From Anas platyrhynchos (Eukaryota; Chordata; Aves; Anseriformes; Anatidae): DNA of 64,000 bases. The stretch's first letter is position 1. The number at the start of each line of letters is the position of its first letter. This document shows positions 1 to 16,906 of this stretch, piece by piece. The stretch covers positions 21,752,501 through 21,816,500 of the forward strand of contig NC_092592.1 of the NCBI RefSeq assembly GCF_047663525.1, in the 5' to 3' direction. Under the pieces are notes generated by a model, which was given only the letters and a program-made list of their open reading frames with translations, did not search any database and was not told the origin of the DNA. The position numbers were made by a program, and so were the translations under genes.

Positions 1-3000
1 CAAAAGCTTGTAGAGACCATAGAGACCAAAAAAACACTACAGAGACCACAGAGACCAAAAAAAGGCCATAGAGACCAAAAGCCTGTACAGACTGCAGAGA
101 CTCTAGTCTCTCACAGAGACTAGAGACACCAAGAGACCACAGAGACTATAGAGACTATGGAGACCATGGAGACCATAAAAATACCATAGAGATCACAGAG
201 TAGAAAGACCACAGAGACCATAGAGGCCAAAAAAGACCATAGAGACCAAAAGGAGACCAAAAGCCTGTACAGACTGTAGAGACCATAGAGACCAAAAGCC
301 TGTAGAGACCATAGAGACCAAAAAAACACTATAGAGACCATAGAGACCAAAAAGAGACTACAGAGACCACAGAGACCAAAAAAAGGCCATAGAGACCAAA
401 AGCCTGTACAGACTGTAGAGACCATAGAGACTATAGACACCAAGAGACCACAGAGACTATGGACACTATAGGGACTATAGAGACCATAAAAATACCATAG
501 AGATCACAGAGTAGAAAGACCACAGAGACCATAGAGGCCAAAAAAGACCATAGAGACCAAAAGGAGACCAAAAGCCTGTACAGACTGTAGAGACCATAGA
601 GACCAAAAGCGTGTAGAGACCATAGAGACCAAAAGCGTGTAGAGACCATAGAGACCAAAAGCCTGTAGAGACCATAGAGACCAAAAAACCACTATAGAGA
701 CCAAAAGGAGACCGAAAAGAGACTACAGAGACCACAGACACCAAAAAAAGGACATAGAGACCAAAAGCCTGTACAGAATGCAGAGACTATAGAGACCAAA
801 GACCACAGAGACTATAGAGACCAAGAGACCACAGAGACTATAGAGACTATGGAGACCATGGAGACCATAAAAATACCATAGAGATCACAGAGTAGAAAGA
901 CCATAGAGACTATAGAGGCCAAAAAAGACCACAGAGACCAAAAGGAGACCAAAAGCCTGTACAGACTGTACAGACCATAGATACCAAAGACCACAGAGAC
1001 TATAGACACCAAGAGACCACAGAGACTATAGAGACTATGGAGACCACGAAGACCATAAAAATACCATAGAGATCACAGAGTAGAAAGACCACAGAGACCA
1101 TAGAGGCCATAGAGGCCAAAAAAGACCATAGCGACCAAAAGGAGACCAAAAGCCTGTACAGACTGTAGAGACCATAGAGACCAAAAGCCTGCAGAGACCA
1201 TAGAGACCAAAAGCCTGCAGAGACCATAGAGACCAAAAGCCTGCAGAGACCACAGAGACCAAAAAATCACTATAGAGACCATAGAGACCAAAAAGAGACT
1301 ACAGAGACCACAGAGACCAAAAAAAGGCCATAGAGACCAAAAGAGTGTACAGACTGCAGAGACCATAGAGACTATAGACACCAAGAGACCACAGAGACTA
1401 TAGAGACCATAAAAATAACATAGAGATCACAGAGTAGAAAGACCACAGAAACCATAGAGGCCAAAAAAGACCGTAGAGACCAAAAGGAGACCAAAAGCCT
1501 GTACAGACTGTAGAGACCATAGAGACCAAAAGCCTGCAGAGACCATAGAGACCAAAAGCCTGCAGAGACCATAGAGACCAAAAGAACACTATAGAGACCA
1601 TAGAGACCAAAAAGAGACTACAGAGACCACAGAGACCAAAAAAAGGCCATAGAGACCAAAAGCCTGTACAGACTGTAGAGACCAAAGACCACAGAGACTA
1701 TAGACACCAAGAGACTACAGAGACTATAGACACTATGGAGACTATGGAGACCATGGAGACCATAAAAATACGATAGAGATCACAGAGTAGAAAGACCACA
1801 GAGACCATAGAGGCCATAGAGGCCAAAAAAGACCATAGCGACCAAAAGGAGACCAAAAGCCTGTACAGACTGTAGAAAACATAGAGACCAAAAGCCTGTA
1901 GAGACTATAGAGACCAAAAGCCTGCAGAGACCATTGAGACCAAAAGCTTGTAGAGACCATAGAGACAAAAAAAACACTATAGAGACCATAGAGACCAAAA
2001 AGAGACTACAGAGACCAGAGACCAAAAAAAGGCTATAGAGACCAAAATCCTGTACAGAATGTAGAGACCATAGAGACCAAAAGCCTGCAGAGACCATAGA
2101 AACCAAAAGCCTGCAGAGACCATTGAGACCAAAAGCCTGCAGAGACCATTGAGACCAAAAGCCTGCAGAGACCATTGAGACCAAAAGCTTGTAGAGACCA
2201 TAGAGACCAAAAAAACACTACAGAGACCACAGAGACCAAAAAAAGGCCATAGAGACCAAAAGCCTGTACAGACTGTAGAGACCATAGAGACCAAAGACCA
2301 CAGAGACTATAGACACCAAGAGACCACAGAGACTATAGACACTATGGAGACTATGGAGACCATGGAGACCATAAAAATACGATAGAGATCACAGAGTAGA
2401 AAGACCACAGAGACCATAGAGGCCAAAAAAGACCATAGAGACCAAAAGGAGACCAAAAGCCTGTACAGACTGTAGAGACCATAGAGACCAAAGACCACAG
2501 AGACTATAGAAACCAAGAGACCACAGAGACTATAGAGACTATGGAGACCATAAAAATACCATAGAGATCACAGAATAGAAAGACCATAGAGACCATAGAG
2601 GCCAAAAAAGACCATAGAGACCAAAAGGAGACCAAAAGCCTGTACAGACTGTAGAGACCATAGAGACCAAAGACCACAGAGACTATAGACACCAACAGAC
2701 CACAGAGACTATAGAGACTATAGAGACTATGGAGAGCATGGAGACCATAAAAATACCATAGAGATCACAGAGTAGAAAGACCACAGAAGCCATAGAGGCC
2801 AAAAAAGACCATAGAGACCAAAAGGAGACCAAAAGCCTGTACAGACTGTAGAGACCATAGAGACCGAAAGCCTCTAGAGACCACAGAGACCAAAAGCCTG
2901 CAGAGACCACAGAGACCAAAAAACCACTATAGAGACCATAGAGACCAAAAAGAGACTACAGAGACCACAGAGACCAAAAAAAGGCCATAGAGACCAAAAG

Positions 3001-5586
3001 CCTGTACAGACTGTAGAGACCATAGAGACCGAAAGCCTCTAGAGACCACAGAGACCAAAAGCCTGCAGAGACCACTGAGACCAAAAAACCACTATAGAGA
3101 CCATAGAGACCAAAAAGAGACTACAGACACCACAGAGACCAAAAAAAGGCCATAGAGACGAAAAGAGTGTACAGACTGCAGAGACCATAGAGACTATACA
3201 CACCAAGAGACCACAGAGACTATAGAGACTATAGAGACTATGGAGACCATGGAGACCATAAAAATACCATAGAGATCACAGAGTAGAAAGACCGCAGAGA
3301 CCATAGAGGCCAAAAAAGACCATAGAGACCAAAAGGAGACCAAAAGCCTGTACAGACTGTAGAGACCATAGAGACCAAAGACCACAGAGACTATAGACAC
3401 CAAGAGACCACAGAGACTATAGAGACTATAGAGAATATGGAGACCATGGAGACCATAAAAATACCATAGAGATCACAGAGTAGAAAGACCGCAGAGACCA
3501 TAGAGGCCAAAAAAGACCATAGAGACCAAAAGGAGACCAAAAGCCTGTACAGACTGTTGAGACCATAGAGACCAAAGACAACAGAGACTATAGACACCAA
3601 AAGCCTGCAGAGACCATTGAGACCAAAAGATTGTAGAGACCACAGAGACCAAAAAAAGGCCATAGAGACCAAAAGAGTGTACAGACTGCAGAGACCATAG
3701 AGACCAAAGACCACAGAGACTATAGACACCAAGAGACCACAGAGACTATAGAGACTATAGAGACTATGGAGACCATAAAAATACCATAGAGATCACAGAG
3801 TAGAAAGACCACAGAGACCATAGAGGCCAAAAAAGACCATAGAGACCAAAAAGAGACCAAAAGCCTGTACAGACTGTAGAGACCATAGAGACCAAAGACC
3901 ACAGAGACTATAGACACCAAGAGACCACAGAGACTATAGAGACTATGGAGACCATGGAGACCATAAAAATACCATAGAGATCACAGAGTAGAAAGACCAC
4001 AGAGACCATAAAGGCCATAGAGGCCAAAAAACACCATAGAGACCAAAAGGAGACCAAAAGCCTGTACAGACTGTAGACCATAGAGACCAAAAGCCTGTAG
4101 AGACCATAGAAACCAAAAGCCTGCAGAGACCATTGAGACCAAAAGCTTGTAGAGACCATAGAGACCAATAAAACACTATAGAGACCATAGAGACCAAGAA
4201 GAGACTACAGAGACCACAGAGACCAAAAAAAGGCCATAGAGACCAAAAGCTTTACAGACCGCAGAGACTATAGAGACCAAAGACCACAGAGACTATAGAC
4301 ACCAAGAGACCACAGAGACTATAGAGACTATAGAGACTATGGAGACCATAAAAATACCATAGAGATCACAGAGTAGAAAGACCACAGAAACCATAGAGGC
4401 CAAAAAAGACCATAGAGACCAAAAGGAGACCAAAAGCCTGTACAGACTGTAGAGAACATAGAGACCAAAAGCCTGCAGAGACCATAGAGACCAAAAGCCT
4501 GCAGAGACCATAGAGACCAAAAGCCTGCAGAGACCATTGAGACCAAAAGCTTGTAGAGACCATAGAGACCAAAAAAACACTATAGAGACCATAGAGACCA
4601 AAAAGAGACTACAGAGACCAGAGACCAAAAAAAGGCTATAGAGACCAAAAGCCTGTACAGACTGTAGAGACCATAGAGACCAAAAGCCTGCAGAGACCAT
4701 AGAGACCAAAAGCCTGCAGAGACCATTGAGACCAAAAGCTTGTAGAGACCATAGAGACCAAAAAAACACTACAGAGACCACAGAGACCAAAAAAAGGCCA
4801 TAGAGACCAAAAGCCTGTACAGACTGTAGAGACCAAAGACCACAGAGACTATAGACACCAAGAGACCACAGAGACTATAGACACTATGGAGACTATGGAG
4901 ACCATGGAGACCATAAAAATACCATAGAGATCACATAATAGAAAGACCACAAAGACCATAGAGGCCATAGAGGCCAAAAAAGACCATAGAGACCAAAAGG
5001 AGACCAAAAGCCTGTACAGACTGTAGAGACCATAGAGACCAAAAGCCTGTAGACACCATAGAGACCAAAAAACAACTATAGAGACCACAGAGACCAAAAA
5101 GAGACTACAGAGACCACAGAGACCAAAAGCCTGTACAGAATGCAGAGATCATAGAGACCAAAGACCACAGAGACTATAGACACCAAGAGACCACAGAGAC
5201 TATAGACACTATGGAGACTATGGAGACCATGGAGACCATAAAAATACCATAGAGATCACAGAGTAGAAAGACCACAGAGACCATAGAGGCCAAAAAAGAC
5301 CATAGAGACCAAAAGGAGACCAAAAGCCTGTACAGACTGTAGAGACCATAGAGACCAAAGACCACAGAGACTATAGAAACCAAGAGACCACAGAGACTAT
5401 AGAGACTATAGAGACTATGGAGACCATCAAAATACCATAGAGATCACAGAGTAGAAAGACCATAGAGGCCAAAAAAGACCATAGAGGCCAAAAGGAGACC
5501 AAAAGCCTGTACAGACTGTAGAGACCATAGAGACCAAAAGCCTGTAGAGACCATAGAGACCAAAAAACCACTATAGAGACCATAGA

Positions 5587-6470
5587 GATCAAAAAGCACT
5601 ATGGAGACCATAGAGACCAAAAAGAGACTACAGAGACCACAGAGACCAAAAAAAGGCCATAGAGACTAAAAGCCTGTACAGAATGCAGAGACTATAGAGA
5701 CCAAAGACCACAGAGACTAGAGACACCAAGAGACCACAGAGACTATAGAGACTATAGAGACTATGGAGAGCATAAAAATACCATAGAGATCGTAGAATAG
5801 AAAGACCACAGAGACCATGGAGGCCAAAAAAGACCATAGAGACCAAAAGGAGACCAAAAGCCTGTACAGACTGTAGAGACCATAGAGACCAAAGACCACA
5901 GAGACTAGAGACACCAAGAGACCACAGAGACTATAGAGACTATAGAGACTATAGAGACTATAGAGACTATAGAGACTATAGAGACTATAGAGACTATAGA
6001 GACTATAGAGACCATAAAAATACCATAGAGATCGTAGAGTAGAAAGACCATAGAGACCATAGAGGCCAAAAAGACCATAGAGACCAAAAGGAGACGAAAA
6101 GCCTGTACAGACTGTAGAGACCATAGAGACCAAAGACCACAGAGACTAGAGACACCAAGAGACCACAGAGACTATAGAGACTATGGAGAACATGGAGACC
6201 ATAAAAATACCATAGAGATCACAGAGTAGAAAGACCACAGAGACCATAGAGGCCAAAAAAAACCATAGAGACCAAAAGGAGACCAAAAGCCTGTACAGAC
6301 TGTAGAGACCATAGAGACCAAAAGCCTGTAGAGACCATACAGACCAAAAAAACACTATAGAGACCAAAGAGACCAAAAAGAGACTACAGAGACCACAGAG
6401 ACGAAAAAAAGGCCATAGAGACCAAAAGAGTGTACAGACTGCAGAGACTATAGAGACCAAAGACCACAGA
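5587..6470. repeat. Higher-order block A of the array, duplicated at 8346-9192
   Basis: This block shares rare variants with 8346-9192. They include a GCACTATGGAGACC start, GAGACTAAAAGCC, GGAGAGCATAAAAATACC, the GATCGTAGAATAG and GATCGTAGAGTAG forms of the marker, GAGAACATGGAGACC, and GAGACGAAAAAAAGGCC near the right end. The order is the same in both copies, with an offset of about 2759 bp at the left and about 2722 bp at the right. The difference comes largely from a run of about nine pure GAGACTATA units near 5930-6010, which is shorter in the other copy and partly replaced by GAGACCACA units. Confidence 0.8.
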
Positions 6471-8345
6471 GAATAGAGACACCAAGAGACCACAGAGACT
6501 ATAGAGACTATGGAGACCATGGAGACCATAAAAATACCATAGAGATCACAGAGTAGAAAGACCACAGAGACCAAAGAGGCCATAGAGGCCAAAAAAGACC
6601 ATAGAGACCAAAAGGAGACCAAAAGCCTGTACAGACTGTAGAGACCATAGAGACCAAAAGCCTGTAGAGACCATACAGACCAAAAAACCACTATAGAGAC
6701 TAAAGTACCAAAAAGAGACTACAAAGACCACAGAGACCAAAAAAAGGCCATAGAGACCAAAAGCCTGTACAGACTGCAGAGACTATAGAGACCAAAGACA
6801 CCAAGAGACCACAGAGACTATAGAGACTATGGAGACCATGGAGACCATAAAAATACCATAGAGATCTCAGAGTAGAAAGACCACAGAGACCATAGAGACC
6901 ATAGAGGCCAAAAAAGACCATAGAGACCAAAAGGAGACCAAAAGCCTGTACAGACTGTAGAGACCATAGAGACCAAAAAAACACTACAGAGACCATAGAG
7001 ACCAAAAAGAGACTACAGAGACCACAGAGACCAAAAAAAGGCCATAGAGACCAAAAGCCTGTACAGACTGCAGAGACTATAGAGACCAAAGACCACAGAG
7101 ACTATAGACACCAAGAGACAACAGAGACCACAGAGACTATAGAGACTATAGAGACTATAGAGACTATAGAGACTACAGAGACTACAGAGACCATAAAAAT
7201 ACCATAGAGATCACAGAGTAGAAAGACCACAGAGACCATAGAGGCCAAAAAAAGACCATAGAGACCAAAAGGAGACCAAAAGCCTGTACAGACTGTAGAG
7301 ACCATAGAGACCAAAAAGAGACTACAGAGACCACAGAGACCAAAAAAAGGCCATAGAGACCAAAAGCCTGTACAGACTGTACAGACCATAGAGACCAAAG
7401 ACCACAGAGACTATAGACACCAAGAGACCACAGAGACTATAGACACTATGGAGACTATGGAGACCATAAAAATACGATAGAGATCACAGAGTAGAAAGAC
7501 CACAGAGACCATAGAGGCCACAGAGGCCAAAAAAGACCATAGCGACCAAAAGGAGACCAAAAGCCTGTACAGACTGTAGAGAACATAGAGACCAAAAGCC
7601 TGTAGAGACCATAGAGACCAAAAGCCTGCAGAGACCATTGAGACCAAAAGCTTGTAGAGACCATAGAGACCAAAAAAACACTATAGAGACCATAGAGAGC
7701 AAAAAAAGGCCATAGAGACCAAAAGCCTGTACAGACTGTAGAGACGATAGAGACCAAAAGCCTGCAGAGACCATAGAAACCAAAAGCCTGCAGAGACCAT
7801 TGAGACCAAAAGCCTGCAGAGACCATTGAGACCAAAAGCCTGCAGAGACCATAGAGACCAAAAAAACACTACAGAGACCACAGAGACCAAAAAAAGGCCA
7901 TAGAGACCAAAAGCCTGTACAGACTGTAGAGACCATAGAGACCAAAAGCCTGCAGAGACCATAGAAACCAAAAGCCTGCAGAGACCATTGAGACCAAAAG
8001 CCTGCAGAGACCATTGAGACCAAAAAAACACTACAGAGACCACAGAGACCAAAAAAAGGCCATAGAGACCAAAAGCCTGTACAGACTGTAGAGACCATAG
8101 AGACCAAAGACCACAGAGACTATAGACACCAAGAGACCACAGAGACTATAGACACTATGGAGACTATGGAGACCATAAAAATACCATAGAGATCACAGAG
8201 TAGAAAGACCACAGAGGCCATAGAGGCCAAAAAAGACCATAGAGACCAAAAGGAGACCAAAAGCCTGTACAGACTGTAGAGACCATAGAGACCAAAAGCC
8301 TGTAGAGACCATAGAGACCAAAAAACAACTATAGGGACCATAGAG

Positions 8346-9192
8346 ATCAAAAAGCACTATGGAGACCATAGAGACCAAAAAGAGACTACAGAGACCACAG
8401 AGACCAAAAAAAGGCCATAGAGACTAAAAGCCTGTACAGAATGCAGAGACTATAGAGACCAAAGACCACAGAGACTAGAGACACCAAGAGACCACAGAGA
8501 CTATAGAGACTATAGAGACTATGGAGAGCATAAAAATACCATAGAGATCGTAGAATAGAAAGACCACAGAGACCATGGAGGCCAAAAAAGACCATAGAGA
8601 CCAAAAGGAGACCAAAAGCCTGTACAGACTGTAGAGACCATAGAGACCAAAGACCACAGAGACTAGAGACACCAAGAGACCACAGAGACCACAGAGACCA
8701 CAGAGACTATAGAGACTATAGAGACTATAGAGACCATAAAAATACCATAGAGATCGTAGAGTAGAAAGACCATAGAGACCATAGAGGCCAAAAAGACCAT
8801 AGAGACCAAAAGGAGACCAAAAGCCTGTACAGACTGTAGAGACCATAGAGACCAAAGACCACAGAGACTATAGACACCAAGAGACCACAGAGACTATAGA
8901 GACTATGGAGAACATGGAGACCATAAAAATACCATAGAGATCACAGAGTAGAAAGACCACAGAGACCATAGAGGCCAAAAAAGACCATAGAGACCAAAAG
9001 GAGACCAAAAGCCTGTACAGACTGTAGAGACCATAGAGACCAAAAGCCTGTAGAGACCATACAGACCAAAAAAACACTATAGAGACCACAGAGACCAAAA
9101 AGAGACTACAGAGACCACAGAGACGAAAAAAAGGCCATAGAGACCAAAAGAGTGTACAGACTGCAGAGACTATAGAGACCAAAGACCACAGA
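8346..9192. repeat. Higher-order block B of the array, duplicate of 5587-6470
   Basis: This is the second copy of the block described at 5587-6470, with the same rare variants in the same order. The stretch homologous to the long GAGACTATA run reads as three GAGACCACA units followed by three GAGACTATA units. The block ends where the array becomes irregular towards its right boundary. Confidence 0.8.
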
Positions 9193-9712
9193 GACTACAT
9201 AGACCAAAAGACTATAGAGACTACAGAGAATAAAAAACTGTAGAGACTATAGAGACCACAGAGACCAAAAAATATCATAGAGATCAGAGGCTAAAAGGAG
9301 ACCATAGAGGCCAAAAGGAGACCATAGAGGCCATATACACCACATAGAGACCAAAAAAAGACTAGAGAGACCACAGAGACCGAAAAAAGGCCACAGAGAC
9401 CATAAGACTGTACAGACTACAGAGACCATAGAGACCAAGAGAGTATAGAGACTACACAGTCCAAAAGACTATAGAGACTACAGAGACCAAAAAACTGTAG
9501 AGACTCTAAGGACCACAGAGACCAAAAGACTATAGAGAGTATAGAGATCAAAAGACTATAGAGACCAGAGAGACTATCAATACCAAGAGACCAAAAGACT
9601 ATTGAGACCAAGAGACCACAGCGACCATAGAAAGTATAGAGATCAAAAGACCATAGAGACTATAGAGACCAAAAAAAGACTGCACAGAGACCGCACAAAG
9701 ACTGCACAAAGC

Positions 9713-10067
9713 ACATGTGGTCAAACATGCAGTTTTACATACCAGTGGAGAATCAGATTAGAGAGAAAACCTGTACTATAATATATGCACCTGGGGAGTG
9801 ACCCTTCTCACCTGAAAGCAGTAAGTTTACCACTATAACTCTCAGTAGATTTGTGTTCATTCCTATAAGTAATGACCAAAATGTTTCTCAGAGCACAAAA
9901 CCTTTATAATAGTGTCTTTAATTCCTCCTGTCAGGCTTTCACCCAATACATGCTCAAAAATAGATCTGTGTAATTTCAAATATTGTTACACAAAGTTTCC
10001 TGTCCAACACTCTCAGGAGTATCCCACTGTTTCACAATCATGTATCAAAACTTAAGAGTTAACTTAC
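9713..10067. other. Unique intronic sequence between the tandem array and WASHC2 exon 9
   Basis: This is ordinary AT-rich intronic sequence forming the first 355 bp of WASHC2 intron 9 in the direction of transcription, ahead of the array. The intron donor (GTAAGT on the minus strand) is at its right edge. I see no other element in it. Confidence 0.7.
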
Positions 10068-13000
10068 ACGAACGGTCTTCATCCTCTTTGACCAGTACTT
10101 CTCCTTTGATTCGGGCTGCAAGCTCATCGGCAAATGATGTTGGTCTTTTCTTTTTCTGAGGAGTATGGAAAATAACAGCATATTCCTTATATGCAGTCCC
10201 ATTACCAGTTTGATGCAATTGCAATTGTAAGTATTGTATTCTACAGCCTCAATTGTACAATTTCCTATCCACAATTTGATTGAAGCACTCACAAGAGGCA
10301 ATGCAGCTTTCTATTAAGAAAGCAATTAGGAGATTATGTGTGAATCAAGGAAAAGCCATTTCTAGTCCTTTATGATAATAGTTTTTAATATCACCTCATT
10401 TTGGGAACATGACCAGCAAGAAGCATTTGCCACACACAAATGCAACAATTTCTTAATGACATTTAGAGACAGCTTTGATGCCAATTTAGGGTTCAAGAAG
10501 CAAAACTGGAACAATCACGTTGAAAGACCATACAGGATTCTTACAGGCCCTCTCTATAGGATCCCATCTCATGTAACCACAAGTTACTGTTATAATCACA
10601 CCTTTCAGATTTTTCATGATAGAAGTAAAAAAATCTATTCCCACAAAGAGGCAACATTTACTTACAGTCCTCGTGCTTACCTCTGTGTCTCCATCCTCAT
10701 CTTCCTCTTTTTCAGAGTCAAAGAGATCGCCACCATCATAATCATCTTCATCACTCATCTGTGCCGTCCTCTAAGAAAAAAAATAAATACGCTGTTGTGT
10801 TCTCCTGAAGTTGGCATACAAAAGCATAAACAAAAAAAAAATAATTAAAAATTCACCTGCTTCGATAAAATATTCAAAGCAAATTCACTGAAAGGATGGA
10901 AATATTCAGCCAGTTTGAGGTACCACGCAACTTTTTAGAGGTAAGAACAGAGTGCCTTTAGCTGTAAGTAACTTAATGTATTCTCTAGTACACTAGCTCT
11001 ATGGTGCATCACCAAACATTTCTCAATCAGGATCAACTGAGGACAATAAGGCTGTCCTCACAAGGAGCGTACTCCTACCATACACAAGCCTGAACTGCTT
11101 TGTCTGCCCAGTTTCCCTTAGTTTACTAACTGTTCTCCACCAAAGACCTAGTAATTACGCCTTATATGTGGAGCACTGAGATTAGCTAGTAAAAAATTTT
11201 GCCATTTTGAGCTATTCCAAAGGTAGATAGCAGTATCTTAAATATAGTACTAAGTTACTAAGTACTTAAAAATACATCAGGCATACAAAGTTACCCTATG
11301 AAGACCAATACAACTTCAGGTAACTAACATCTGAGTGCTTTTGTAACATTGCTTTAACAATTTTAAAAAAGGGTTAGTTTTTGAAACACTGTTCTTTTGG
11401 CCCTCATCTTCTCAGCAGGTGGGTCCCCAGTATAAGTCTCTTTTTCACTGATACGTTTAACGTGGATAAGATTCCTTCCCCTAGCACCAACAGTTGAAGT
11501 CAGGCTTTAATTTCTAAACCTAAACGTTTATTTTTCTCTTTTCATCTGTTACCCAAATAGTCACACTTTCCAAATGCTTCATACTATTCTTATCTTTCAT
11601 TTCACACCATACCCAGACTGCATTGTTCCTTACTACTTGCTTTGCAAGTTCAGAACTTTAATTAGACATAATAATTCCTCAGGAACCTAGTTTTCCTAGG
11701 GTTGATTCTTTCAACTCTCTTGGATCCAAAGTTATTGCTGAGGAAAACACACATCAGGCAATGCTATTGCACATACGCTTTTCATCTAATGATAGCTTGC
11801 AAGCATGTCTTTAACCCCAGTACAGGTTCAATTGCACAGTATAGTGCCACCTGGTCAGGACAACGTACCCATACAAAGTTATACAGACCAGGCTTAAACA
11901 AGCCTTTTAATAGTTAACTGTCTAGAGCTCTGATCTCCTCTTTATTACATTCTCAGTCTGTCTCAAGCAGTGAGTCTTTCAGGTGGTACCAAAGTGTATA
12001 ACCATACCGTCTTTTGGTCATCTTCACTAGGGTTTCCAAATTCATCATCTGATTCCTGGAACATAAGAGACCAAAGACAAGCATCACACATTGCTTCATT
12101 CAGTGGCTAAGGGATAGGGCTCAGAAACTTTGGACTTGCTTAGGTTTAGGAATTCACATCTCCTCACTGCAAACACATGATTGTTTGCCCACCACTGACC
12201 ATCTACATGAAAGGAGCTCAGTAAAGCCATCACTGAGTTAGCAAATAGAGCAAGCTCCATTTCAGTAACTCAAAAGGGATTAAATTTTAATTGAACAAAG
12301 ATACCAAAACCAAATTCCTGAGGAAAAAGGGAGTGCTTCTACAACACAGGCATAAACCAGAAACATTCCAGCTAAGGCATACAAAATATCAGAACTTGTT
12401 ATTCCAATGCAGTGGATTCATAAGGCAAAGCCTGGAGATGCATCACTGAAACCTGTTTAAATATATTCCTGTTAGTTTCCATTCCATTCTTTGTCACTGT
12501 AACTTACAACAAATTTGCCCTCCGTCAATTCAATTGTTCATTGCAAAAAGCTTCAAGCTGAAACTAAACTAGAATAAAAAATTTCAGTCTGAAATACTCT
12601 ACTATAACAGCAGTTAGAGACAACACCACTTTGCTGCTCTTCTGAAAGGCTGCAGAGGAAATTATTGTGTAAGAATAGTAACAGAAAAATACATTTACAA
12701 CTGACACAGGGAGCATACCTTGCAATACTGTCTTGATACCACACACAGAAAACCAAGGTAGGTAATGGCCTCGCAGGCAAACAAGGACTCATGAATATCT
12801 ATTCAAAGTAGCTAGTACTCTGTTGCTTACCTCTTCATCCTTTTCTTCGCTGTCAATCACACTTCCACGATCACTATCTACTGATCCTTCTATTTTAAAT
12901 GAAAACAGAGAAGTGAAGATCAGACGTGACATCTGCACACAGAGCTTGCTGGTCAGAAGGCATATCTACTGCAACTTTAAAGGCTTTGTGATGAGAACTA

Positions 13001-16000
13001 AAAACCAGGTAAAAAAAGAGTGGTTTGGAAGTGCTTTGTAGTCTGCTGAAATTCCAGCATTTTGTGTTTCCAATAATACACAGAGCACGAGGTACTGACA
13101 ACTCACATATTTGGAAAGGTGGTTGTTACAGCATAGCGCATGTTTCGCCAGCTAACTGCAGTATGCATCTAAACATGCAAAAACACTATGCAGCATAACA
13201 AAAGCTATTCAATTAAAACCAAAGACCAAAGTCTTAAATTAGGAGCTAGTTACTCCCATAGAAATAAAAGGTCATTCCAGCACATACCTTCACTAGTCAG
13301 ATCTCCAAGGCCAACATCATCTTGTTCCATGAACTGCTGAGAGCCAATCAAGTAAGGTAAAGGCCTGTCAATATAGAGATCCTAGAAAGAGACAACATGA
13401 AGTCTTTCTGATATCTAGGAACAGCTCTACATTGCTAATGAATCCTACAACCCTTATTTTAAGGCAAGGAAGATACAAACTAGATTCATGAGAATCCCAC
13501 CAGACATACACTTCAAGTTGGGTGGGCCAACTGAGATTTATTCCTTTTAATGCTGTCAAAGAACATGGGCTACTTCTATCTGCATGGTCCCAGCACATTT
13601 TCTAGATGTGTTAACAACATAAAAATATCTTTGCAAATCCTACATCTAGGATTCTTCATTACTGGCAGTAAAAAATGACTACAAAGATACTGTTTGTACC
13701 TAAAGAGCATGACATTTAAAGGTGCCCTTCCACCCAGAACTCAGACTTTCATTTCCAAGTTCATCACTGTTGAAATAATTCCATAAAGTGAGACATTCTT
13801 TAAAGATAAACCCAACTACAAGACAAGCACGCTACACAAGAAAATAGCTCAGCAAGGAGCATTTCTGCTTTAGACATAGTCACCAAATCCTCTTTTTAGA
13901 TAAAAAAAATATCAATTTTATATCCACACAGTGACACTGCTTGCAGAAGTGAAGAGCAAGTCCAATAAAACCAAGCACAAACGCAGTACTCCCAGCAAGA
14001 ACAGGTCTCTCTACCTTTGGCTCAAGTATCAGTTCCACCCTTTCATTACTTTCTTCCTCTTCCGAGTCAGAGTTGCCTGCTTTGATGTCTAGCTGTTCAA
14101 AAGCACTGTCTAGAACTTGCAACCCATAATTCACTGCTTCTTGGATTTTGGGAATCAGATCAGCTTCTTTCTGTTCCCGTGTCCTTTCCTTTAACAACAA
14201 GAAAAAACACACTGTCATTGCATTTTATTCAAGACTCAATCTCACTGCAACACGTATGCAAAAATTTAACTTCAGATTAATGTGGAGAAAGCTTTTTCAC
14301 TATATGCAGGAGAAAAAGACCTTCATGAGCTTCCCCCCCCCTTAATTCACCTTTATCAACCTGGTGAATTGAGACATTCTAAAGACCCACTCCAGCAAAG
14401 CACAATCCTATTTGGGCTTCCAGCTCACCAAGGGAACCTTTGTGGTATAACACACTAAGACTATAAGATATATAAAAAAGCTCTGAGTTTCTCTCCCTGG
14501 GAATTGTTGTTAGATTTTGCTTCCCTAGTTCACTACCTCTGAATCCAATACAGCCTGAGGCCTCAATTCTCTTGCTGAAAAAATATGCATAGCTGTTGAG
14601 AAATCAACACAAGTCTTGTCTACTAGATTACAATATTGAGTTTGGGTGGGCTCTAACAGGTTATCATAAGCTTCAATACTACTTTTCAATGTTATGCTTG
14701 AATGACATAAGCTTATGGAGTAGAAAGACTTCAAGGAGAAAGGAAACACTTTACTTTGTAAGCTCATAGAAGTAAATACTCATGGAAGCTTAAGTTAACT
14801 ACCTGCTCTGTTTTGTCTCCAACATCAGCTTTGGGAATAGGCTCTTCCACTTCTTCATCATAGACTCGCTAAAAATTCAAGCACAAATAACTCAAGAACA
14901 ACGTACTGCTGCAAGGGCTAAATCATGAGCACTGCCAACAAAATAAAATACACTGTTAATATGTGATTAAACTATACATTAATTCATGAAATATTAAAAA
15001 AAACAAAAACACATAGATGATGCCAGGCATCTTCATAGCTTCCTTCCTGCGTTGCAGTCATTATCAAGTTCCTATCATGCAGCCTTTCAAGCCAACTGAG
15101 GTGATTCAAGACTGCAAATGTCACTACAGTAGAAGAAGACAAGTTGAGCATTTAATCCCATTCACAGATTGACCTAAATATGTTTTAAAAAATACACACA
15201 ACACTGTTTAACCCTCTTTTATTAAGCTGTTCCAGAAGCCTTCAAAAATCAAGACTAAATTTATTTATGGTCAGTCAGGTTTGGTCACCCAGCAGCTTTT
15301 CTCCTTTTTTTGTATCTTTCTCCCGTTCTTACAGAGAAAGGTCACATCCTCCCTCAGCCTTCAGTTTGTTCTGATGATTCCTCCATCCAGCACTTTTGGC
15401 ACTCTCTTGTAGGAACAGCTACAAGGAGACACAGGGAAATAAAGAGTACCCCTTGAATCTCTCAAGCACAGATGGAAGTTATCCTCTTGGAAGAGACAGA
15501 TCTCTTTCTATTGCTAAATTGAGAACTAGAAGTGAGGACCCATTTCTGTGCACTTAAATTTGGGCACAAACATTTTGAAGCACCCAAGACTTAAGACATT
15601 TGGTACAAACTGTTCTCAGTGAAGTCATTAACGCTGAACAGCAAAGGTAGGCCAGAAAAGACACTGCTGTACTGAGAAAAAAAAAAAAAAAAAAAAAAAA
15701 AAAGCCACCCACAACAGAAACCCAGATTTTCATTGCCTTGTCCTCTGCCAGCATCTTTCCAATAATGGCATCATGGCTTCAGAGGAGATACATGTGGCTT
15801 GCGAGGAATGCTGATCAAAACAAAATACTTGATAAAGGCCAATGATAGGGAAAAAAACAAAACCCACAAATGTGTAAAACTATTAAAGCTCTATATCTTA
15901 ATTACACACTAGCTTTTAGCAATACAGTATCACAAGGGGCTTTCACATCTTTCTTGTAACCTTTCCAAAATAGCAACAATCACAAAATGGTACAATTCAT

Positions 16001-16906
16001 TAACAGGCAGCTCTTCCTGACCAAATATTAATAGACAACCACCTGCAGACTAGCACCTTTAATTTTATGTTAAAAGCAGTTTGTGTAACAGCACTGAGCA
16101 AGCCTACAGCACTGTACAGCATTTTTTATATTTAGACAGACAACCGAGTGCAGCCAACGGCTACATTGACGCTACCTGTAAAGATACACCAAGAAATGGA
16201 AAGGAAATCCCAATCACCACATCACATGTAAACATGGCAAGTAATGCAGAAGAGGCAAAAGGGAATGCACACGTCTTGGACTGTGCATCACTCACAAAGG
16301 AGCTGGGAGGCCTTTTAAAACAAAGTGTTTATAAGCCACTCCATCTCTAAACCACCACTTGCCACAAAGCGAAAGCATTTTTACCCGTTGCAGCGCGGGG
16401 ACCCACCAGGGTTTGAAGCACAAGCTCGGCGCCACACACCAACATACTCACGTTCTCTATGAACTGGGTGTTTGACAGCATGAGAAAGTCGTTGAAGACA
16501 TTGTGGAGGCGGCAGTCCGCGGCTTTTGTTTCGCTGATCAGCCCGTCCACTTGCTTCTTGATCTCGTGCGTCCTGGAGATGGTTTGCTGCGAGAACTCTT
16601 GCAGGAAACGCAGCAGCTGCCGGGGACAGGGGAAGGCAGCGCTAGGGGCAGCTCCTTCTGCCCCCCAGCGCCACAGCCGGCTGCGATCGCGCCCTCACCG
16701 CCACGCACACGCCTGGCCCCGGCCCCGGCCCCGACCCCCGGCCCCGACCCCCGGCCCCGGCCCCGGCCCCGACCCCCGGCCCCGGCGCTCACCCCGGCGT
16801 CCGAGGCCAAGGACCAGCTCTGGCTGCCCTTACGGATCTCCTCCAGCGACCAGGGCCGCTCCCACACCGCCGCCGGCTCTGCCGCGTCCCGCGCCCCGTT
16901 CATCAT
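10068..16906 (-). CDS. WASHC2: WASHC2 (FAM21), N-terminal nine coding exons, 3' part outside window
   Basis: WASHC2 is the large flexible subunit of the endosomal WASH complex. Its head binds the other subunits, and its long acidic tail with repeated LF motifs binds retromer VPS35 and capping protein, directing Arp2/3 actin assembly to sorting endosomes. I read nine minus-strand exons with GT-AG introns and continuous phase: 16906-16793, 16616-16452, 14868-14803, 14188-14015, 13381-13288, 12889-12831, 12055-12008, 10770-10681, 10155-10068. They total 898 bp, or 299 codons plus one base. The family head is clear: [13 protein letters not shown] and [11 protein letters not shown] (exon 1), [20 protein letters not shown] and [20 protein letters not shown] (exon 2), [20 protein letters not shown] (exon 4), [14 protein letters not shown] (exon 5). 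Exons 6-8 are acidic (residues 205-270) with a DLF motif at 255-257. Exon 9 has [15 protein letters not shown]. The start is the first of two adjacent ATGs, as in mammalian FAM21. Mammalian proteins exceed 1300 residues, so about three quarters lies beyond the left edge. Confidence 0.95.
10156..16792 (-). other. WASHC2: WASHC2 introns 1-8
   Basis: The introns, all with minus-strand GT...AG ends, are 16617-16792 (176 bp, very GC-rich), 14869-16451, 14189-14802, 13382-14014, 12890-13287, 12056-12830, 10771-12007 and 10156-10680. Intron 2 holds a run of 27 A at 15677-15703 on the plus strand. I see no nested gene or intact mobile element in them. Short open frames inside them do not resemble proteins I know. 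Confidence 0.85.
16720..16790 (-). repeat. GGGGCC-type G-rich repeat in WASHC2 intron 1
   Basis: The plus strand reads as alternating GGCCCC and GACCCC units. The transcribed sense is therefore tandem GGGGCC/GGGGTC. There are well over four G-runs of 4-5 within about 70 bases, so the sense RNA and DNA are strong G-quadruplex candidates. The tract fills a large part of a 176-bp intron. Confidence 0.9.

What the first reader, a model, noticed from the sequence alone, without database searches (positions are those of the whole stretch)
1..9712. Intron 9 of WASHC2 carries a tandem array of at least 9.7 kb
Seen: the 9-bp-based array runs from the window edge to 9712, only 355 bp from WASHC2 exon 9, and no WASHC2 exon lies inside it. 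Known: WASHC2 continues for about 1000 further codons. Inference: a long array sits inside an essential endosomal gene and must be transcribed and removed with intron 9. Such arrays vary in length and could affect transcription, splicing or assembly.
Basis: partly seen in the sequence, partly recalled or inferred. Interest (0 to 1): 0.7.

Follow-up and report, generated by a model that had tools for sequence, protein, structure and literature searches.

The report
Giant repeat array in WASHC2 intron
Just inside an intron of an endosome-sorting gene, this genome carries a nearly 10,000-base stretch made of about a thousand variants of one nine-letter DNA word; it looks like an ordinary but unusually long and still-changing tandem repeat, most likely removed when the gene's RNA is spliced.

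Summary
Window 1-9712 is one uninterrupted tandem array (consensus TAGAGACCA, about 1,070 imperfect copies), in one orientation (418 GAGACC, 0 GGTCTC). Longer blocks have been re-amplified on top of the 9-mer. It begins 355 nt downstream of the donor of WASHC2 coding exon 9. Nine exons map to the minus strand with splice borders; 37 of 40 residues match the FAM21 peptide printed in PMC4786876. Block similarity falls near 9712 but not near position 1, so the array very probably runs on past the window. A 354-bp exact internal repeat suggests recent turnover.

Exon 10, length variation, transcription, splicing and the bird host could not be tested: no genome, reads or related sequence was reachable. 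Best explanation: an intronic minisatellite (VNTR), grown by slippage and unequal exchange, transcribed and spliced out. It resembles the 'sequence stuttering' of chicken introns, but no copy of exon 9 was found in it.

In the gene's sense the array is pyrimidine-rich: 530 UCUCU, 236 acceptor-like and 1 donor-like site. A PTB-binding or splice-regulating role is possible, but nothing here tests it. New member of a known kind; modest interest.

The parts
1..9712 (.). Tandem array, 9-bp unit TAGAGACCA on the + strand (TGGTCTCTA in the sense of WASHC2), very probably continuing beyond the window edge
   Evidence: TRF, autocorrelation, core spacing and similarity profile, cyclic alignment
9401..9712 (.). 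Edge of the array with the lowest block similarity, ending in an 11-bp sub-array (9675-9711)
   Evidence: Best match elsewhere in the array falls to 164 and 158 identical bases of 200 for the windows at 9401 and 9501, against 175-200 for the windows from 1 to 9301. Fit to the 9-mer itself does not fall (0.79 from 9501 on). TRF rows
5021..6507 (.). Copy 1 of a block duplication of about 1.5 kb inside the array, holding the longest exact repeat (354 bp at 5578)
   Evidence: Self-blastn 89.7% over 1502 columns; exact repeat of 354 bp at 5578 and 8336
7788..9229 (.). Copy 2 of the same block (exact 354 bp at 8336)
9713..10067 (-). Non-repetitive start of WASHC2 intron 9, donor GTAAGT at 10062-10067
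   Evidence: no match of the array to 9713-64000
10068..10155 (-). WASHC2 coding exon 9 ([29 protein letters not shown]), ends in phase 1
10681..10770 (-). WASHC2 coding exon 8
12008..12055 (-). WASHC2 coding exon 7
12831..12889 (-). WASHC2 coding exon 6 (end set by hand at GAG|GTAAGC; one search was run with 12828)
13288..13381 (-). WASHC2 coding exon 5
14015..14188 (-). WASHC2 coding exon 4
14803..14868 (-). WASHC2 coding exon 3
16452..16616 (-). WASHC2 coding exon 2, holds most of the segment matching printed FAM21 residues 40-79
16793..16906 (-). WASHC2 first coding exon, in the G+C-rich stretch at 16-17 kb

Best explanation
It is a large intronic minisatellite (VNTR). A short 9-bp word in WASHC2 intron 9 was multiplied by replication slippage (inferred), and larger blocks of it were then duplicated by unequal exchange or gene conversion (shown as structure, inferred as process). 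It is carried passively: transcribed as part of the pre-mRNA and removed when exon 9 is joined to the next exon (inferred). Its length probably differs between individuals (inferred).
For: Uninterrupted 9-bp array in one orientation, 418 GAGACC against 0 GGTCTC and 486 AGAGAC against 1 GTCTCT on the + strand. Superimposed block repeats of many sizes: 28 landmark copies spaced 179-708 bp, a 1.5-kb pair at 89.7%, and a 354-bp exact pair. Block similarity falls at the 9712 edge only. The array follows a good donor (GTAAGT, exon 9), and no exon was found in it. It holds 1 donor-like GTRAG in 9.7 kb on the sense strand, so decoy exons are unlikely to be defined (inference). Nine exons joined in one open frame argue against a dead gene copy.
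Against: The far side of the array was not seen, so 'inside intron 9' is shown on one side only. No reads, alleles or relatives were examined. Against a purely passive reading: the sense strand is richer than its dinucleotide shuffles in UCUCU (530 against a mean of 351, sd 14) and in acceptor-like sites (236 against 137.5, sd 7.6). Both also follow from repeating the unit. The lack of donors is no sign of selection (1 against a shuffle mean of 3.6, sd 2.1). Fit to the 9-mer does not fall at the edge (0.79), so the decay is in block similarity only.
Confidence: 0.85

Rival explanations
1. The array acts in RNA: the intron is a multivalent pyrimidine-rich platform that binds PTBP1-like proteins and so delays or regulates splicing of WASHC2 intron 9, or titrates the protein, as the CUCUCU-rich PNCTR RNA does in human cells.
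For: 530 UCUCU in 9.7 kb of the sense strand (54.6 per kb against 2.0 in the rest of that strand), 1 on the other strand. 236 acceptor-like sites on the sense strand and 1 on the other; 1 donor-like site. PNCTR's CUCUCU repeats bind and sequester PTBP1 (passages of PMC7151548).
Against: The motif is part of the repeat unit, so its number is no evidence of selection. The broader pattern YUCUYY is not enriched (4.2 per kb against 4.5 and 5.3 on the two strands of the rest). Sense-strand pieces fold more stably than dinucleotide shuffles (negative z in 16 of 16 windows; none of 50 shuffles as stable in 14 of 16), which may hide the motif. No conservation, expression or binding data.
Confidence: 0.08
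2. Assembly artefact or rearrangement: the array is a collapsed, expanded or misjoined repeat, and WASHC2 exon 10 is not on its far side, or the gene is broken here.
For: Only one flank is in the window. A 354-bp exact repeat, and 22 of the 195 internal matches of 300 columns or more are 85% identical or better; such repeats are hard to assemble.
Against: Block similarity falls over the last 300 bases before the unique intron, as at a natural array edge. The array is a diverged mosaic: 173 of 195 internal matches of 300 columns or more are 72-84% identical, so long reads should be placeable (inference). No Ns in the window. Exons 1-9 are in frame.
Confidence: 0.07
3. It is an instance of avian 'sequence stuttering' (PMC12954441), a locally driven intron expansion typical of dot chromosomes, and not a common minisatellite. 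(This overlaps with the best explanation, so the odds do not add up to 1.)
For: Local expansion in one intron, imperfect tandems, a second layer of blocks of hundreds of bases, exons intact. The paper's spans reach 23,555 bp.
Against: The basic unit here is 9 bp; the paper's blocks are tens to hundreds of bases. No match of the array to exon 9 or any other sequence in 9713-64000. Introns 1-8 carry no array over 100 bp (intron 1 has one of 81 bp), whereas genes with variable introns on dot chromosomes have on average 6.9 of them. Outside the first-exon region, window G+C is mostly 35-48%.
Confidence: 0.1

Closest known systems
Intronic minisatellite / VNTR (pattern of 7 bp or more in PMC8096271, start of abstract in the search listing only; PMC4992247, passages, would class a 9-bp unit as a microsatellite)
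   Same: Head-to-tail short unit in an intron, mosaic unit variants, block re-amplification
   Different: Very long (over 9.7 kb) and strongly diverged; polymorphism not shown here
Avian 'sequence stuttering' introns (PMC12954441; sections 7 and 8, part 1 of 2 of each, and passages seen)
   Same: Local expansion in an intron, imperfect tandems, kilobase scale, coding exons untouched
   Different: 9-bp basic unit, no copy of exon 9 found, introns 1-8 without such arrays, chromosome type unknown
PNCTR, CUCUCU-repeat architectural RNA (PMC7151548, passages seen)
   Same: Short repeats that put hundreds of UCUCU into the RNA
   Different: An independent noncoding RNA reported to bind PTBP1; here an intron with no expression or binding data

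Membership tests
Minisatellite / VNTR | Head-to-tail repeats of a unit of 7 bp or more | tested here: met
   TRF period 9, 1071 copies; further periods of 188, 197, 320 bp
Minisatellite / VNTR | Copy number differs between individuals | not testable with these tools
   No reads or second assembly; the 354-bp exact internal repeat only suggests recent turnover
Intron 9 of WASHC2 | Upstream exon of WASHC2 with a donor site next to the array | tested here: met
   Exon 9 with GTAAGT donor; 37 of 40 residues equal printed FAM21 residues 40-79
Intron 9 of WASHC2 | Downstream WASHC2 exon on the far side of the array | not testable with these tools
Avian sequence stuttering | Imperfect tandem expansion confined to an intron, exons intact | tested here: inconclusive
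   Met on the exon 9 side; the other flank was not seen
Avian sequence stuttering | Repeated blocks tens to hundreds of bases long | tested here: inconclusive
   Basic unit 9 bp, with a landmark recurring every 179-708 bp on top
Avian sequence stuttering, exon type | Copies of the adjacent exon in the intron | tested here: not met
   No match of the array to 9713-64000, which includes exon 9; exon 10 side not seen
Avian sequence stuttering | Location on a dot chromosome (strong preference, not a strict rule in the paper) | not testable with these tools
   No chromosome assignment; window G+C
PTBP1-sequestering repeat RNA | Many pyrimidine-tract binding motifs in the RNA strand | tested here: inconclusive
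   530 UCUCU on the sense strand, but YUCUYY is not enriched; the CUCUCU hexamer itself was not counted
PTBP1-sequestering repeat RNA | Expressed RNA that binds PTBP1 | not testable with these tools
   No expression or binding data

The most novel reading that the evidence does not exclude
A one-way, nearly donor-free, acceptor-rich pyrimidine array of more than 9.7 kb has grown just inside WASHC2 intron 9. It works as a length-tunable PTB-type binding platform that sets how efficiently exon 9 is joined to exon 10, so that array length controls the dose of full-length WASHC2 and hence of the WASH complex.
Probability: 0.05. Interest if true: 0.7.

Novelty: new member of a known kind. Interest (0 to 1): 0.3.

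Why it matters
Very long intronic arrays are easily lost or collapsed in assemblies, and length changes in such arrays can affect splicing or expression (general knowledge). This one sits 355 nt from a good donor in a gene of the endosomal WASH complex, in a window with no other tandem array over 100 bp. It is a clean place to ask whether array length matters to splicing, and whether 'stuttering'-like growth also happens in genes whose other introns are stable.

Tried and rejected
Rejected: array as coding sequence. The longest open stretch is 211 codons on the sense strand, with 70-76 stops per frame, as a 9-bp (3-codon) unit would give. Rejected: known structured RNA or tRNA in the window (0 Rfam matches at gathering scores; 0 tRNAs with the bacterial-code run). 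Rejected: origin from exon 9 or its flanks (no match at E up to 1e-3). Rejected: inverted organisation of whole units (0 GGTCTC and 1 GTCTCT on the + strand).

Led nowhere: the Pfam scan of the nine-exon protein gave one family at E 0.13, below its cut-off, and the PDB search gave 0 at 0.001. The gene name therefore rests on the FAM21 peptide printed in PMC4786876 and on recall for the rest of the protein. Viral-contig search with that protein: 21 stretches matched a pattern, none was confirmed. An array-specific 24-mer: 0. A scan for two tandem units gave 4 viral-contig and 5 prokaryote stretches, each with at most 5 exact AGAGACCA on a strand, so no comparable array. Ten of the 55 open stretches of 85 or more codons beyond 17 kb were given to Pfam and had no match at 0.1. 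Folding: single 300-base pieces gave z -6.5 in the array and -1.2 outside. In 16 array windows the sense strand had a mean z of -4.9 and the other strand -4.0 against dinucleotide shuffles; against arrays with permuted unit positions the means were -2.7 and +0.7, and on the sense strand 8 of 16 windows had none of 50 as stable. Absolute energy on the sense strand (-71 kcal/mol) was like that of 9 windows outside (-75). I do not build on it.

Paper searches: WASHC2 + tandem repeat + intron gave 1 paper, on ovarian cancer xenografts; repeat sequences gave 0; WASHC2C + chicken + tandem repeat gave 0. Three wider searches listed 20 of 146, 8 of 8 and 8 of 1,804 papers. One search for window peptides found the FAM21 paper and one on PTBP1 listed 12 of 62. 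All cover only the held open-access library, so I make no claim that the array is unreported.

Full report
What is there. Bases 1-9712 form one tandem array. TRF gives a 9-bp unit, TAGAGACCA, from 11 to 9671 with 1071 copies (65% matches, 10% indels), and an 11-bp sub-array that ends at 9711. The self-match at lag 9 is 0.59 over the array and averages 0.27 in 250-base stretches of the rest of the window. Aligned to a cyclic 9-mer, 78-82% of the bases in each 500-base piece fit the consensus. Positions 2, 4, 5 and 7 are the most constant (90-99%), and positions 1, 3 and 8 the most variable (58-70%). There are 572 exact GAGAC cores with no gap over 82 bp, and 884 with up to one mismatch with no gap over 26 bp. 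The units face one way: on the + strand 418 GAGACC and no GGTCTC, 486 AGAGAC and 1 GTCTCT. The array is A-rich (46.5%) and T-poor (10.3%) on the + strand, with 28 CpG against about 452 expected from base composition.

Layers. On top of the 9-mer lie longer repeats. A 34-base landmark occurs 28 times with up to 5 edits, 179 to 708 bases apart; TRF also reports periods of 188, 197, 215 and 320. Self-comparison shows a 1.5-kb pair, 5021-6507 and 7788-9229, at 89.7%. Inside that pair is the longest exact repeat, 354 bp at 5578 and 8336. Of 195 internal matches of 300 columns or more, 173 are 72-84% identical and 22 are 85-95%. So older and more recent duplications coexist, as in minisatellites that grow by slippage and then by exchange of blocks (process inferred).

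Edges. For 200-base pieces, the best match elsewhere in the array keeps 175-200 identical bases for the windows starting from 1 to 9301. It falls to 164 and 158 for those at 9401 and 9501. Fit to the 9-mer consensus does not fall there (0.79), so what is lost near 9712 is similarity to the re-amplified blocks. This is what a natural edge looks like, while position 1 (191 of 200) looks like interior. I infer that the array continues beyond the window by an unknown length.

The gene. On the minus strand I placed nine coding exons by hand from the ORF list. They keep one reading frame, and introns 1-8 have GT and AG borders. Exon 6 was run with one codon too many and is given here as ending at GAG|GTAAGC. 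The segment across the exon 1/2 join matches the peptide printed as FAM21 residues 40-79 in PMC4786876 at 37 of 40 residues (passage seen; count). Pfam and the PDB gave no meaningful match. The rest of the identification, including the length of about 1000 further codons, is recalled. Exon 9 ends at 10068 with donor GTAAGT, so 355 nt separate it from the array. No gap in the array is large enough for an exon of ordinary size.

What it probably does. The best reading is passive: the array is transcribed, then lost with the intron (inferred). In the sense of WASHC2 it carries 530 UCUCU (shuffle mean 351), 236 acceptor-like sites (137.5) and 1 donor-like GTRAG (3.6, sd 2.1). The rest of the same strand has 2.0 UCUCU, 4.6 acceptor-like and 1.9 donor-like sites per kb. 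Acceptors without donors are unlikely to define exons (general knowledge of exon definition), which would let a cell tolerate such an array. The lack of donors follows from base composition and is no sign of selection. The same numbers leave room for PTB-type proteins: CUCUCU repeats of the human PNCTR RNA bind and sequester PTBP1 (passages of PMC7151548). But the motif is part of the unit, YUCUYY is not enriched, and no conservation or binding was tested. I give this kind of role 8%, and its boldest form 5%.

Compared with what is known. Imperfect tandem expansions in introns are described in chicken as 'sequence stuttering', mostly on dot chromosomes, with spans up to 23,555 bp and strong length variation (PMC12954441; sections 7 and 8, part 1 of 2 of each, and passages). 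This array shares the local, imperfect form. It differs in its 9-bp unit, in having no copy of exon 9, and in that introns 1-8 carry no array over 100 bp. In that paper 11% of macrochromosome introns and 18% of non-dot microchromosome introns also vary in length, so a variable intron elsewhere would not be unusual. I file it as a long intronic minisatellite, a new member of a known kind. It is worth a check of the far flank and of allele lengths.

Noticed in passing
window 1-9712, minus strand: Sense-strand RNA pieces have a negative folding z against dinucleotide shuffles in 16 of 16 windows, perhaps through near-palindromic words (104 CTATAG, 49 CTGTACAG); absolute energy is like the rest of the window.
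   Followed up: partly
L007 419-473 and L006 2883-2932: Short arrays (6.1 and 5.6 copies) of the same 9-mer occur in two prokaryote records (an Oscillospiraceae and an Alistipes MAG); they were found by searching for the unit, so chance or convergence is likely.
   Followed up: partly
window 16715-16795: An 81-bp G+C-rich tandem repeat (GGCCCC-type) in WASHC2 intron 1, reaching the donor end of coding exon 1.
   Followed up: no
window 17000-64000: No second gene recognised: 10 of the 55 open stretches of 85 or more codons were tried against Pfam with no match; the other 45 and shorter exons were not tried.
   Followed up: partly
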